Below, piece by piece: positions 5,220 through 10,092 of a stretch of DNA of 54,853 nucleotides (the stretch's first letter is position 1; every line of letters begins with the position of its first letter). The notes under the pieces are model-generated. The model did not search any database, was not told where the DNA came from, and worked only from the letters and a program-made list of their open reading frames with translations. Origin of the DNA: Lentisphaeria bacterium. GTDB taxonomy: Bacteria; Verrucomicrobiota; Lentisphaeria; Victivallales; Victivallaceae. The translations under genes and the position numbers were made by a program. The stretch is taken from positions 1 to 54,853 of the forward strand of contig JAFSTC010000063.1 of NCBI GenBank assembly GCA_017450705.1, in the 5' to 3' direction.

Positions 5220-6434
5220 ATGGGAAAGTACCGTTTTTTTGCGATCGTATCGTTTTTCTGCTGCGTCCTGGCGGGCGCGGGGGAGATCTTCGTGGACTAC
5301 AACGCTTCCGCCCCGGGCGACGGCTCCCGGAAAAAACCCTTCAGTGACTTCGACCGCGCCATCCGCAAGGCGAAGCCGGGAGACACGGTCAAAATTTTGC
5401 CCGCGGGGAAGATCATCCACGACACGCTGCGTTTCGCGAACATCCGCGGCACCGCCGACAAACCCATCGTCGTCGACGGCATGTTCAACATCTTTTCCGG
5501 CGTCAAGGCGATCGATCCCGCCCAGTGGCAGGAGAAAAGCCCCGGATTGTACTGCCGCCGGGCCAAGATGGCAGAGCCCATGCGGAACCGCTTCTTTCTG
5601 GTGATGAAGGGCAAGATCGTCCGCATGGGACGCTACACCAAGGGCCGGGGAAGCGCCAAATTCAAAAAGCCCGAGACCCTCGGTCCCGGCGAATGGACGA
5701 CCTGCCCCACGCCCGAGAAAAACATCTGGGAGATCTTCGTGCGGCTCCCCGAAAACTGCGCGTCTCTCAAGGATGCTCATATCGAGGAGCCCACGATGAA
5801 AACCGTCTCCGGCGTCATTTTCTACGGCAAGGAGGGCAGTTCCCACGTCACCGTGCGCAACGTCATCGTCCGGCACGTCTGGAACGACGGCTTCAATTTC
5901 CACGGCCCCAACACCCATCTGGTGCTTGAAAACATCGCCGCCGTCGAGTGCGGCGACGACGGGATCAGCGCCCACGAGGCCAATCAGATCTTCGTCCGCA
6001 ACTTCGTCGCCATCGGCAACTCCACCGGCATCTGCCACATCCAGAAGGCCGACTGCACCCATGAAAACGTCTATCTCGAAAACAACCTCGGTCTGGACGT
6101 CGAATTCGTCCAGGACACCCGGAACGTGCTGAAAAACGCCGCGGTCAGCGGCATCGCCCATGACGGGATCCTCATCGGCAACCGCACGGGGTACATGCTG
6201 ATGGAGAACTGCCGCTTCATTGACCGCTCCGGAAAGAGCCCCTTCCGCTTCCCGACGAAAACCGAGGCGAAACTTGAGGTCCGCGACGTGCAGTTCTCGG
6301 GCTACCGGCCGAAGAACCTTCCTGAAAGCATCAAAAAAACCGGGGAGGAACAGCTGAAAACCGCAGTCGAAGAGCAGCGGAAAAAACTTTTCGCCATTTT
6401 CGGCGGCCAGCTGGAACGCGCCCTGAAGCCCTGA
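5220..6434 (+). CDS. Secreted right-handed beta-helix protein (pectate-lyase-like)
   Basis: A 404-residue protein with a clear signal peptide (MGKYRFFAIVSFFCCVLAGA, cleavage near residue 20-22). The mature start, with GEIFVDYNASAPGDGSRKKP and FSDFDRAIRKAKPGDTVKI, is the usual opening of parallel beta-helix proteins. Rungs run to about residue 345, and Asn/Asp-rich turns around 215-290 (WNDGFNFHGP, CGDDGISAHE) could form the active-site face. A Lys/Glu-rich helix closes the protein. Family knowledge points to polysaccharide lyase or glycosidase activity, but catalytic residues cannot be assigned. An in-frame ATG at 5169 lies upstream of the -10 element, so the ATG at 5220 is used. The next gene follows after 25 nt. 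Confidence 0.75.
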   Translation: MGKYRFFAIVSFFCCVLAGAGEIFVDYNASAPGDGSRKKPFSDFDRAIRKAKPGDTVKILPAGKIIHDTLRFANIRGTADKPIVVDGMFNIFSGVKAIDPAQWQEKSPGLYCRRAKMAEPMRNRFFLVMKGKIVRMGRYTKGRGSAKFKKPETLGPGEWTTCPTPEKNIWEIFVRLPENCASLKDAHIEEPTMKTVSGVIFYGKEGSSHVTVRNVIVRHVWNDGFNFHGPNTHLVLENIAAVECGDDGISAHEANQIFVRNFVAIGNSTGICHIQKADCTHENVYLENNLGLDVEFVQDTRNVLKNAAVSGIAHDGILIGNRTGYMLMENCRFIDRSGKSPFRFPTKTEAKLEVRDVQFSGYRPKNLPESIKKTGEEQLKTAVEEQRKKLFAIFGGQLERALKP

Positions 6435-6459
6435 CGGTCCCGCATCCGGAGAAACGGCC

Positions 6460-7566
6460 ATGAAAACATATTCCGCCGGTCATGACGATCTTTCCCACGA
6501 ATGCACCAGCTGGATGGTCTTCGGCGACCTGACGAAGAACGGCACCCTGCTTCTGCACAAGAACCGGGACGCGGGCGCCCGGGCCATCACGCCCCTGAAA
6601 AGTCCCCCGGGGGCCCCGCGGCAATGGATCGGCCTTGGCGACATAGACCCGAAAAAAACGGATCCGGAAAACGTCTGCATGGGCCTCAACGCCTCCGGTC
6701 TGGCCGCCGCCGTCAACAGCGGGGAGAAAACGACCGAACCCAGCGACCCGGACGCGAAGACCGAGACGCCCGACATCATCAAACTCTGCCTCGCCCGGTG
6801 CGACACGGCGGCTCAGGCCGTGGAAAAGCTGGAGGAGATCCGGCGCGCCCGGTGTTATGCCCACGGCGACAAGGGCTCCATTTTCCTCTTCATGGATCTT
6901 GCGGAGGGTTTCATCGTCGACATGACCGCCGACCGACGTTCCGTGGCGCGGTATGACCACGATTACGCGGTCCGCGCCAACATCTGGCACAATCCCGGCA
7001 TGGCGGCCGCCGCCTGCGGCACGGCCGCGAGCTGGCTCGAAAGCTGCAACCGGGAGTACATGGCGATCCGGGGCCTGAACCGCGCCCTGCGGGCCAATGG
7101 CGAAATCACCGTGGCCGACGCCGTCGCCATCGCCCGGGACACCGTGCTTCTGGAGGACTCCCCCTTCCCCCGGACCCTCTGTTACAAGACCACCAACTCC
7201 GCCTCGACGCTGGAGCTGAACATTGCCTTCCCCGACGTTCTCTCCACCGGGTATTTTCTGATCGGCCCGCCCCGTCAGACCATCCTCGTCCCCGTGCCCG
7301 TGTGCACCGAAGCGTACCTTCCGGAGATGACGGATCTCCGCTGGTCCTCGGCCGCGTGGAACCTCTTTGAGGCAAATGGCTTCGGCGCGGAGATCCCCCG
7401 GACGTGGCTGACCTTCGAAGCCGATGCGCTGGCCGGATACAAAGCCGCTCAGGCGGCCGCGGAAGACCTGCTGAAAGCCGGGAAACGCGCCGACGCCGTC
7501 AAGCTCCTCAACGACCGGGCCCGTACCATTTGGCAGGCCGCGGCGCGCCTGCTGGATCTCGCCTGA
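6460..7566 (+). CDS. Ntn-hydrolase-like protein (C45/C69 type amidohydrolase or acyltransferase)
   Basis: A 368-residue protein with the pattern ECTSWMVFGDLTKNGTLLLHKNRD near the N-terminus. This is the form seen in N-terminal-nucleophile hydrolases of peptidase families C45 and C69, where a Cys (here Cys15) becomes the N-terminal nucleophile after removal of a short propeptide and an NRD segment follows. Later motifs include GLNASGLA (about 75-82) and IVDMTADRRSVARYDHDYAVRANIW (about 150-175), also typical of the fold. No Sec signal is evident. It is probably co-transcribed with the beta-helix gene 25 nt upstream. The ribosome site GGAGAAA precedes ATG 6460. The substrate (peptide, amide or acyl compound) is unknown. 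Confidence 0.65.
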   Translation: MKTYSAGHDDLSHECTSWMVFGDLTKNGTLLLHKNRDAGARAITPLKSPPGAPRQWIGLGDIDPKKTDPENVCMGLNASGLAAAVNSGEKTTEPSDPDAKTETPDIIKLCLARCDTAAQAVEKLEEIRRARCYAHGDKGSIFLFMDLAEGFIVDMTADRRSVARYDHDYAVRANIWHNPGMAAAACGTAASWLESCNREYMAIRGLNRALRANGEITVADAVAIARDTVLLEDSPFPRTLCYKTTNSASTLELNIAFPDVLSTGYFLIGPPRQTILVPVPVCTEAYLPEMTDLRWSSAAWNLFEANGFGAEIPRTWLTFEADALAGYKAAQAAAEDLLKAGKRADAVKLLNDRARTIWQAAARLLDLA

Positions 7567-7591
7567 TCCGCCGGGATGCGAAGACCGGGGG

Positions 7592-7627
7592 ACTGTGAGT
7601 ACTGTGAATACTGCGAATACTGAATTG
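7592..7627 (+). repeat. 9-bp direct repeat array, left flank of the four-helix gene
   Basis: The unit ACTGTGAAT is repeated about 3.5 times (7592-7600 with one change, 7601-7609 exact, 7610-7618 with one change, then a partial unit). The array begins 25 nt after the stop of the Ntn-hydrolase gene and ends 11 nt before the four-helix-bundle start codon. The same unit recurs in direct and inverted form after that gene. Confidence 0.85.
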
Positions 7628-7638
7628 ACGGGGAACCG

Positions 7639-8232
7639 ATGACCGACGGCCGCAAAAATCTGACCTCTCCCAACGGCGATGTCAGGACATTTCTGCCCTT
7701 TCGAAAGGCGATGATCATTTACGATCTGACCTTTCATTTTGCCCATACATTTCTCGCCCGAAACGACCGAACGGTCGATCAGATGATCCAGGCCGCCCGC
7801 AGCGGCAAACAGAACATCGCGGAGGGGAGCGCGGCAGGCGTCACCTCCATGGAGACCGCCATCAAATTGACCAATGTCGCAAAAGCGAGTTTTCTGGAAC
7901 TGCTGTTGGATTACGAGGATTTTCTGCGGGTGCATGATTTCCGGCAGTGGGAGAAAGACTCCGAAGAAGTCCGGTTTCTGCGGCAAAAGTCGACCGATCC
8001 CGCGGTTCCCGACCGGTGGTTCGTCGATCTGGCGAAGACCCGGCCGGCCGAAACCGTCGCCAACATGGCGATCGTCTTTCTGCATCAGGAAGATTATCTG
8101 CTTCAGGCGCAGCTCGATGCGCTGGAGCGGAAGTTTCTTTCCCTGGGCGGCTTCCGGGAACAGATGTTTGCCGCAAGATCGAAGGCAAGAAACGAGGAAA
8201 GCAGGAAAAACAAGGGAGGCTGTGAATACTAA
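7639..8232 (+). CDS. Four-helix-bundle protein (23S rRNA intervening-sequence/Avd-like family, suffix-domain type)
   Basis: A 197-residue, mostly helical cytosolic protein. The core RTVDQMIQAARSGKQNIAEG, then ETAIKLTNVAKASFLELLLD, is the signature of the four-helix-bundle proteins first found in rRNA intervening sequences and also seen as Avd in diversity-generating retroelements. A C-terminal helical extension (about 120-190) matches the form carrying a 'suffix' domain. No rRNA gene or reverse transcriptase is nearby. The gene is bracketed by arrays of a 9-bp repeat, and its last codons (Cys-Glu-Tyr-stop) are written by the right-hand array. The ATG at 7639 has only a weak ribosome site (GGGGA). 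Base composition looks a little lower in GC than its neighbours. The function is unknown; nucleic-acid binding is a reasonable guess for the family. Confidence 0.8.
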   Translation: MTDGRKNLTSPNGDVRTFLPFRKAMIIYDLTFHFAHTFLARNDRTVDQMIQAARSGKQNIAEGSAAGVTSMETAIKLTNVAKASFLELLLDYEDFLRVHDFRQWEKDSEEVRFLRQKSTDPAVPDRWFVDLAKTRPAETVANMAIVFLHQEDYLLQAQLDALERKFLSLGGFREQMFAARSKARNEESRKNKGGCEY

Positions 8233-8248
8233 GAATACTATGAATACT
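8221..8248 (+). repeat. 9-bp direct repeat array overlapping the four-helix gene's stop
   Basis: Three units, TGTGAATAC, TAAGAATAC and TATGAATAC, in the same orientation as the left array. The stop codon TAA at 8230-8232 lies inside the second unit. About 23 bp later the array is mirrored by five inverted units. Confidence 0.85.
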
Positions 8249-8270
8249 GGATCAGGGTTGACTTTGCGGC

Positions 8271-8314
8271 ATTCACAGTATTCATAGTATTCACAGTATT
8301 CACAGTATTCATAG
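8271..8314 (-). repeat. Inverted 9-bp repeat array, distal right flank
   Basis: Five successive units of ATTCACAGT or ATTCATAGT, the reverse complement of the ACTGTGAAT unit. With the direct array at 8221-8248 it can fold into a long imperfect hairpin of about 28 bp with a loop near 20 nt. It lies between convergent genes, so it may also end transcription. Confidence 0.85.
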
Positions 8315-8331
8315 ACCGCCTCCCCCCAGGG

Positions 8332-10092
8332 TCACCGTGACGGCTTCGCCGGGGCGGCCTCGGCGGCGCGGCGGCGGAACTCGGAGGGCCAGTCGACGTC
8401 GAAGAAACGGCAGGGACGGCCCGCGGCGATGTCCTCCTGCCACAGCTTCAGGTAGCCCTGAACCGGAAAAGCGAAGATCCGGCGGCCGCTTCCGCGGGCG
8501 ATCCGGCGGCGGAAACGGCGCATCTCCTCCACCGTGATCCGGCGCGCCATCTCGCTGTCGTAGAGCTTTTTGAAGGCGATAAGATAACGCACCCAGCACG
8601 CAAGATCCGCGGCGGGGCGGAGATGAGGAATTTTCCGCGCGATCCTCCGGGCGGGCGGAAGAAGTTTTTCCAGCTGTTCCAGCTTGATCCTGCTGAAAAG
8701 CGAGGCCGGGGTCGGGATGTGGCACCCGCCGACGGAATCCACCACCGCCTGCACCCCGTCGAAAAACGCTTCCGCCTCCTTGACCATCCCCGGGAAACGG
8801 CGGCTGAAGAAACGCGCCCGGGCGTCTTCGAAACTCTCCCCCCGGGCCGCCGCGGCCATGAAGCGGTAATTGCTCCCGTAGACGCTCCAGTGCCCCAGCT
8901 GGAACTGCGTCAGGACGCCGTCCACGGCGTGGTCCCGATAGAACCGCAGTTCGTCGAACATCCGCTTCCGGAAGAGCAGCGGCAAGGACATGTAGAAGTT
9001 GATCCCCATGTAGTACTCGTAGATCAGAAGCTCCCCGCCGTCTTTGGCCTTCTCCCAGGCCAGCAGATCCCGGAGGAACCCCCGGTTGGTGGGACAGGCG
9101 GGGTCGTCGAGATCGTGCTGCACGCAGCGCCAGTAATTGGCGAGCTCGACGGCGATCCCCCGGGTCAGGCGGAAGTTTTTCGCGGGCGAGGAGTAATTCA
9201 CGTACCCGAAGAAATCCAGCACGAGATCGGGACGCTTCGCATGGATCTTCTCAGCCACCGCCCCGATGAATTCGTCGTAGGCGTTTTCGGCGAAGAAGTA
9301 GGGTTTTCCCGGCGTGGGGACGCGGCATTTCCTGTCGTCGTCCGGCTGGTAATACTTGCGGCAGCGGGCGCACTCGCACCAGCCGAAGCCGTCGTTGGGA
9401 TTGAGCCCGAGCCGGGTGAGCTCCGGGTGTTTTTCCGCATAGGCCAGAAGCCGCCGGGCGATCTCCTCCCGCAGGCCCGGCTCGGTGGTGCATAATTGTC
9501 GGGTGGCGTGCCGCACTCCGGGCAGTTCCCTTTCCCCGCCCCCGCGGGGACGGAGCGCGAAGTACTCCGGATGGCTTTTGCCGTATTTTTCGAGGGGGAT
9601 GAGGTACTCGAAGTTGTGATGCCCGCTCTCGATGACGATCCCCCGGCAGGCGGCGTACCGCTTGAGGTCGTCCGGGAGCTCATCGTAATACTTCATCCAC
9701 ACCAAAAGATAATTGAGCTTGTTTTTGGCCATCCAATCGAAGAGTTCCCGGGTCTTTCCGGGGTCGAAGGGGAATTCCTGGATGAACCCGCGGTGCCGGA
9801 GCAGCGGCCGCCGGGCCGGAACGAGGACGCCGGAGGAGAGATCGCGCCGGACCTGCGCCGGATCGAAGTCCTCCGTGCCGGGCTCGAAAAAGTCGTACCC
9901 GAGAAAACGCTCGGCGCAGTCGTAGACGGCGTAGAGAAGCTCCGTCTCCGTGGGGCCCGAAAGAAGCCAGACGCCTCCCCTGCGGGCGATCTCGAAGGAG
10001 GGCAATCCAAGGTCGAGGCGGAACTCGGCCTTGCCGCCGCCCAGCCGCCGGAACTCGCTTTCGGCCAGAAGACGCGTCGGAGAGGGATCCAT
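8332..10092 (-). CDS. DUF4838-type glycoside-hydrolase-like protein
   Basis: A 586-residue protein resembling DUF4838 proteins, which are distant relatives of alpha-glucuronidase-type TIM-barrel glycosidases. The family-like segment GLNPNDGFGWCECARCRKYY (about residues 228-247) carries a Cys cluster that may bind a metal. The preceding YAVYDCAERFLGYDFFEPG is typical of the N-terminal half of such proteins. No signal peptide is visible at the ATG, which lies 9 nt after the pseudopilin stop. A TGA/GGGGGAG context gives a possible ribosome site 11 nt upstream. It is the last gene of the operon gntR - glycosidase-like protein - pseudopilin - this gene. Lack of a signal is unusual beside two exported partners, so cytosolic oligosaccharide processing is possible. 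Confidence 0.7.
   Translation of the reverse strand: MDPSPTRLLAESEFRRLGGGKAEFRLDLGLPSFEIARRGGVWLLSGPTETELLYAVYDCAERFLGYDFFEPGTEDFDPAQVRRDLSSGVLVPARRPLLRHRGFIQEFPFDPGKTRELFDWMAKNKLNYLLVWMKYYDELPDDLKRYAACRGIVIESGHHNFEYLIPLEKYGKSHPEYFALRPRGGGERELPGVRHATRQLCTTEPGLREEIARRLLAYAEKHPELTRLGLNPNDGFGWCECARCRKYYQPDDDRKCRVPTPGKPYFFAENAYDEFIGAVAEKIHAKRPDLVLDFFGYVNYSSPAKNFRLTRGIAVELANYWRCVQHDLDDPACPTNRGFLRDLLAWEKAKDGGELLIYEYYMGINFYMSLPLLFRKRMFDELRFYRDHAVDGVLTQFQLGHWSVYGSNYRFMAAAARGESFEDARARFFSRRFPGMVKEAEAFFDGVQAVVDSVGGCHIPTPASLFSRIKLEQLEKLLPPARRIARKIPHLRPAADLACWVRYLIAFKKLYDSEMARRITVEEMRRFRRRIARGSGRRIFAFPVQGYLKLWQEDIAAGRPCRFFDVDWPSEFRRRAAEAAPAKPSR

What the first reader, a model, noticed from the sequence alone, without database searches (positions are those of the whole stretch)
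7592..8314. Four-helix-bundle gene packaged between direct and inverted 9-bp repeat arrays
Seen directly: ACTGTGAAT units lie 11 nt before the gene, the same units run through its stop codon, and five inverted units follow 23 bp later, so the gene and arrays form a cassette of about 720 bp. The protein family is known from rRNA intervening sequences and as Avd in retroelements, both nucleic-acid settings. This copy has neither rRNA nor reverse transcriptase. The cassette could be a small mobile or selfish element, or a protein-repeat pair in which the protein binds the arrays or their RNA hairpin.
Basis: partly seen in the sequence, partly recalled or inferred. Interest (0 to 1): 0.8.

Follow-up and report, generated by a model that had tools for sequence, protein, structure and literature searches.

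The report
Four-helix gene cassette with repeat-array ends
A small bacterial gene travels as one piece together with short, precisely spaced repeats at its two ends; the same arrangement surrounds its relatives in many phyla, which points to a widespread kind of compact mobile element that has no recognisable transposase.

Summary
The window holds a four-helix-bundle gene with suffix domain (7639-8232). Around it lie a direct 9-bp array, a second direct array running through the stop codon, and an inverted array. A related genome has the two neighbouring genes side by side, about 9 bp apart, with no gene and no arrays. Four Nostoc/Calothrix plasmid sites show the same filled/empty pattern for family members without the suffix. 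Across at least eight phyla these genes are flanked by tandem arrays. Unit sequences differ and resemble each other more when the proteins are closer. The period depends on the protein class: 9/10 bp with the suffix domain, 7/8 bp without, with almost no overlap. Gene-less inverted pairs of matching units are dispersed in the same genomes, like REPINs. The only precedent found is the Coxiella 23S rRNA intervening sequence, which has tandem heptamers before its S23 gene. Best reading: a small mobile element whose ends are arrays of a 7-nt core, probably bound by its own oligomeric protein. Movement as a unit is well supported. Binding and self-mobilisation are inferred. The window's genome has no detected reverse transcriptase or Y1 transposase.

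The parts
7592..7622 (+). upstream direct array, core GAATACT + RN, period 9, about 3.5 units
   Evidence: read directly; pattern scan against shuffles
7639..8232 (+). 197-aa S23/IVP-type four-helix bundle protein with four-helix suffix domain (residues 137-185)
   Evidence: TIGR04258 64.8 bits, TIGR02436 24.6 bits; model pLDDT 88, best PDB match 2gsc_B
8220..8249 (+). second direct array, runs through the stop codon (TAA at 8230-8232)
   Evidence: read directly; pattern scan
8271..8314 (-). inverted array, about 5 units of ATTCACAGT, complementary to both direct arrays
   Evidence: TRF score 75, period 9; inverted pairs I1-I6; hairpin with 8220-8249, z -8.1
7567..8331 (.). interval absent from the syntenic site in relative G053 (about 9 bp there, 765 bp here)
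   Evidence: flanking orthologs 68.8% and 77.2% identical, no array in the locus

Best explanation
It is a compact mobile cassette of the S23/IVP family. One gene encodes a four-helix-bundle protein, and the ends of the element are tandem arrays of a conserved 7-nt unit at fixed spacing, direct on the 5' side and inverted on the 3' side. SHOWN: gene and arrays are present or absent together at orthologous sites; the architecture recurs across phyla; the array period differs between the two protein classes; unit sequence follows protein relatedness; gene-less inverted pairs with matching units are dispersed in genomes that hold the matching protein. INFERRED: the protein, an oligomer (its nearest solved relative is built of five four-helix bundles), binds the arrays, possibly one subunit per unit. 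Binding may be to DNA or to the hairpin form of DNA or RNA. It would mark and bring together the element's ends so that the cassette and its gene-less derivatives can be copied or moved. UNKNOWN: which enzyme cuts and joins. No reverse transcriptase or Y1 transposase was detected in the window's genome.
For: Empty/filled sites: window; Nostoc/Calothrix plasmids at four sites, arrays absent from the empty alleles, with insertion between adjacent genes. Flank enrichment about 20-fold. Period: suffix loci 9, 10, 18 or 20 bp in 66 of 68 flanks; canonical loci 7, 8, 14 or 16 bp in 64 of 69 flanks and never 9, 10, 18 or 20. On named plasmids all 14 S23 genes tested carried 7- or 8-bp arrays (or their multiples) in at least one flank, almost always both, commonly with the downstream array complementary to the upstream one. 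In 34 of 45 canonical loci with an upstream array the downstream side holds its reverse complement, against 10 of 268 in cross-locus controls. Protein identity against array similarity: rho 0.32, p about 0.0005 for pairs under 70% identity. All 9 genomes with a closely related protein have GAATACT arrays, against 5 of 69 others, p 1e-8. GTCCCAT arrays in 7 of 9 matching genomes and 0 of 15 others. The window genome's only other suffix gene has the same layout with a different, 10-bp unit. Gene-less hairpin copies in G028, G034, G038.
Against: No catalytic domain is known for the family, and binding was not tested. Target-site duplications are not clear. The suffix proteins are one clade on the tree (1 change), so the split between 9/10 and 7/8 could reflect ancestry rather than the suffix domain itself. 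Some arrays have no matching protein: the window's genome has 21 GTCCGAC hits but no protein of that type, and 12 of 43 genomes without any suffix gene have GTCCGAC arrays. At the window's own site the relative is distant (69-77% aa), so loss there is possible.
Confidence: 0.7

Rival explanations
1. Regulatory pair: the protein is an array-binding autoregulator or nucleoid-type protein. Dispersed arrays are its sites, and ordinary recombination moves the gene and its sites together.
For: Arrays lie next to the start and through the stop of the gene; dispersed arrays lie mostly in intergenic DNA; matching arrays and protein co-occur.
Against: Inverted end-to-end layout, clean insertions between adjacent genes including within cas and nrd gene pairs, and multi-copy gene-less hairpins at contig ends look like mobile elements.
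Confidence: 0.15
2. Passive IVS-like element: the inverted arrays matter only as an RNA stem processed by RNase III, which makes insertion harmless; the protein is dispensable.
For: 23S IVS elements have an S23 ORF between complementary ends cut by RNase III, and in Coxiella the ORF is decaying (PMC4990558). The window arrays fold into a strong hairpin.
Against: The proteins stay strongly conserved (33 invariant columns in 16 diverse members), the period follows protein class, and units track the protein. A stem alone needs no fixed period.
Confidence: 0.1
3. The cassette is moved in trans by a reverse transcriptase or by a Y1/HUH transposase, with the protein as accessory (Avd-like or RAYT-like).
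For: The family includes Avd, the accessory of diversity-generating retroelements (known, not tested here). Y1 transposases occur in 77 of 79 genomes with 5 or more PF05635 copies.
Against: 34 of those 79 genomes have no detected RT, and the window's genome has neither RT nor Y1. Mobile-element load confounds the Y1 association.
Confidence: 0.15
4. Chance or slippage-born low-complexity repeats unrelated to the gene.
For: Tandem repeats grow by slippage; copy number varies between loci.
Against: No matches in 100 shuffles; about 20-fold flank enrichment; class-specific period.
Confidence: 0.01

Closest known systems
23S rRNA intervening sequences (IVS) with S23 ORF, e.g. Coxiella burnetii (PMC4990558)
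   Same: One S23 gene between complementary ends; tandem heptamers before the ORF (GACAGAT in Coxiella); sporadic distribution; long suspected to be mobile
   Different: This one lies between protein genes, not in rRNA; 9-bp period; suffix domain; arrays on both sides with a second direct array through the stop; dispersed gene-less copies
REPIN-RAYT systems (PMC3116915)
   Same: A gene associated with the same repeats that are dispersed as inverted pairs forming hairpins; repeat type matches protein type
   Different: The protein is a four-helix bundle, not a Y1 tyrosine transposase; ends are tandem 7-mers at fixed period, not a single palindrome; many gene copies occur too
Avd of diversity-generating retroelements
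   Same: Same four-helix-bundle superfamily (known, not tested here); nucleic-acid setting
   Different: No RVT_1 match anywhere in the window's genome
Stand-alone four-helix-bundle genes noted in cas loci (PMC3936711, PMC10910872)
   Same: Same protein family; here found between cas6 and cas4 and between cas10 and cmr3, flanked by 7/8-bp arrays
   Different: Those papers list it among CRISPR-linked genes; the arrays suggest insertion of a mobile cassette

Membership tests
S23 / 23S_rRNA_IVP four-helix-bundle family | sequence match to family profiles | tested here: met
   TIGR04258 64.8 (cut-off 40) and TIGR02436 24.6 (cut-off 24); PF05635 E 2e-4 but below its gathering score
S23 / 23S_rRNA_IVP four-helix-bundle family | four-helix-bundle fold | tested here: met
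   model pLDDT 88; Foldseek top hit 2gsc_B, TM by target 0.73, probability 1.0, E 0.12; 2rld_A 0.60
23S rRNA IVS element | inserted in a helix of 23S rRNA | tested here: not met
   lies between two protein-coding genes; no rRNA match in 6400-9400
23S rRNA IVS element | S23 ORF between complementary ends | tested here: met
   inverted pairs I1 and I3 around the gene
23S rRNA IVS element | excision by RNase III | not testable with these tools
   needs an RNA experiment
REPIN-RAYT | repeats flank the gene and are dispersed as inverted pairs | tested here: met
   gene-less hairpins in G028, G034, G038, two contig-end copies in the window's genome, pairs in G080, G084, G085
REPIN-RAYT | Y1 (HUH) tyrosine transposase | tested here: not met
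   the protein is not one; PF01797 finds none in the genome
Diversity-generating retroelement | reverse transcriptase nearby | tested here: not met
   no PF00078 match in the genome
Insertion sequence / MITE | target-site duplication | tested here: inconclusive
   junctions at four plasmid sites show short microhomology at most

The most novel reading that the evidence does not exclude
The whole S23/IVP four-helix family, including rRNA intervening sequences, is a large class of mobile elements without a recognisable transposase. Their ends are tandem arrays read by the element's own oligomeric protein, with a period fixed by the protein's architecture (7/8 without the suffix domain, 9/10 with it), and they seed REPIN-like non-autonomous copies. 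This would also account for many short tandem heptamer repeats in bacterial genomes.
Probability: 0.5. Interest if true: 0.92.

Novelty: new variant of a known kind. Interest (0 to 1): 0.82.

Why it matters
rRNA intervening sequences have been a puzzle for decades: how they spread and what their S23 protein does are both unknown. The same layout outside rRNA, with strain-level empty sites and a repeat period that follows the protein class, makes both questions directly testable. It may also supply a source for many short tandem repeats in bacterial genomes and a simpler account of why this family shows up inside cas operons.

Tried and rejected
Chance repeats: rejected by shuffles and by control windows. 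RT in trans as a requirement: rejected, since 34 of 79 copy-rich genomes and the window's genome lack a detected RT. Y1 transposase in trans: not present in the window's genome; association elsewhere is confounded. Phage carriage: one hit in 2.9 million viral contigs and none among 50,697 phage records. Strict unit-to-protein specificity: not supported for GTCCGAC. Rfam hit mir-6536 on the hairpin is far below its gathering score and was set aside. Strain-level empty sites for the Prevotella nigrescens suffix gene: only its own record is held. No paper found by the full-text searches describes the array association beyond the Coxiella heptamers; subscription journals are not covered.

Full report
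WHAT IS THERE. The window holds a 197-aa gene (7639-8232, +) whose product matches the four-helix suffix domain (TIGR04258, 64.8 bits, cut-off 40) and, marginally, the four-helix bundle family TIGR02436. A direct array precedes it (7592-7622), a second direct array runs through its stop codon (8220-8249), and an inverted array follows (8271-8314). The unit is a conserved 7-mer, GAATACT, plus two variable bases. The pattern never appears in 100 shuffles of the window. The second and third arrays can form a strong hairpin.

IT IS ONE INSERTION UNIT. The upstream gene has a 69% identical ortholog in genome G053, of the same genus group. There the downstream neighbour (77% identical) follows after about 9 bp, with no four-helix gene and no arrays; in the window the gap is 765 bp. 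Those two genomes are distant, so loss in G053 remains possible. Closer comparisons exist for family members without the suffix domain. In Nostoc plasmids of roughly 90-95% DNA identity, three sites are occupied in some records and empty in others, and a fourth occupied site in Nostoc is empty in Calothrix. Arrays are absent from the empty alleles. Example: GGTGAGGTA|ATGGGATTTG in two empty plasmids is split by 506 bp carrying arrays and gene in a third. At one site a record retains array remnants of both orientations without the gene (L399), which shows how gene-less copies can arise. Clear target-site duplications were not seen.

IT IS GENERAL. In 80 suffix-domain loci from Lentisphaerota, Verrucomicrobiota, Planctomycetota, Bacteroidota, Hydrogenedentota, Acidobacteria, Chlorobiota, Mariprofundales and Nitrospirae, tandem arrays scoring 12 or more lie in 41% of upstream and 35% of downstream flanks, against 2.2% of 556 control windows on the same contigs. 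The second suffix gene of the window's own genome (C11:61264, 43% identical) has the same layout with another unit, ACACGGANNN, period 10.

THE PERIOD FOLLOWS THE PROTEIN CLASS. With periods of 5-20 bp searched, suffix loci give 9 (43 flanks), 10 (8), 18 (12), 20 (3) and only two others. Seventy canonical S23 loci give 7 (43), 8 (7), 14 (10), 16 (4) and five others, none at 9, 10, 18 or 20. This was then tested on new material: 14 S23 genes on named cyanobacterial and Gemmatirosa plasmids. All 14 carried 7- or 8-bp arrays (or their multiples) in at least one flank and almost always both, commonly with the downstream array complementary to the upstream one, for example AGGGAAC upstream and GTTCCCT downstream in Nostoc sp. 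C052. In canonical loci with an upstream array, the downstream side holds the reverse complement in 34 of 45 cases, against 10 of 268 cross-locus comparisons; for suffix loci 17 of 48. Caveat: suffix proteins form one clade, so ancestry and domain cannot be separated with these data.

UNITS FOLLOW THE PROTEIN. Array similarity rises with protein identity (rho 0.32, permutation p about 0.0005, pairs below 70% identity). In 78 genomes of the family, GAATACT arrays occur in all 9 that hold a protein at least 61% identical to the window's and in 5 of the other 69 (Fisher p 1e-8). GTCCCAT arrays occur in 7 of 9 genomes whose suffix gene carries that unit and in 0 of 15 others (p 1e-4). GTCCGAC is looser: 25 of 35 genomes with a suffix gene and 12 of 43 without, and the window's genome has such arrays without such a protein.

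DISPERSED GENE-LESS COPIES. In G028, G034 and G038 arrays stand as inverted pairs around a short spacer, in many copies and often at contig ends, as expected of repeats; the body of the element differs between genomes while the 7-mer is kept. In the window's genome most gene-less arrays are single, with two contig-end hairpin copies.

HOW IT PROBABLY WORKS. Shown: gene plus arrays behave as a unit, and arrays and protein are linked in type, spacing and occurrence. Inferred: the protein binds the arrays. The model is an S23 fold with an added suffix (pLDDT 88; best PDB match 2gsc). The 2gsc paper's title describes five four-helix bundles assembled together (reference list of PMC3936711). A ring-like oligomer gripping regularly spaced units is an attractive picture but untested. 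Unknown: the enzyme that moves the element. No RVT_1 or Y1 transposase was found in the window's 97%-complete genome; 34 of 79 genomes with five or more copies have no detected RT.

KNOWN RELATIVES. The closest precedent is the 23S rRNA intervening sequence. In Coxiella it has an S23 ORF, a 28-bp terminal stem and three tandem heptamers GACAGAT before the ORF (PMC4990558). That paper treats the heptamers as a local variable repeat. The relation of gene to dispersed inverted pairs resembles REPIN-RAYT (PMC3116915), but the protein is unrelated to RAYTs. S23 genes reported in cas loci (PMC3936711, PMC10910872) fit insertion of such cassettes: three of the plasmid examples sit between cas genes. 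No paper found by the full-text searches describes the array rule; only open-access papers were searchable.

LIMITS. Many genomes are fragmented metagenome assemblies. Loci were chosen by similarity or profile score. Function of the arrays was not tested in any experiment.

Noticed in passing
G000:C11:61264-61812 (L010): Second suffix gene of the window's genome, flanked by 10-bp ACACGGANNN arrays in the same layout.
   Followed up: yes
L043, L049, L054: In the GTCCGAC subfamily the array also runs inside the gene, giving SDxSDKSDK-like linkers between the four-helix core and the suffix; the 9-bp period keeps the frame.
   Followed up: partly
L382, L389, L393: S23 genes with 7/8-bp arrays sit between cas6 and cas4 or cas10 and cmr3, a likely source of the reported CRISPR association of this family.
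   Followed up: partly
L061, L064: Sequence similarity of these cassettes extends about 280 bp upstream into a SEL1-like coding sequence (function not checked), so some copies may carry a neighbour.
   Followed up: no
L399 621-880: Array remnants of both orientations without an S23 gene at a site that is occupied or empty in relatives; looks like a gene-less derivative.
   Followed up: partly
G028 L212, L217: Gene-less elements end in an outer inverted repeat GGCTGGC / GCCAGCC beyond the arrays; in L212 it extends to CTGTTGGCTGGC / GCCAGCCAACAG.
   Followed up: no
window 8219-8306: The hairpin gives a sub-threshold Rfam hit to mir-6536 (33.4 bits, gathering 100); taken as chance.
   Followed up: yes
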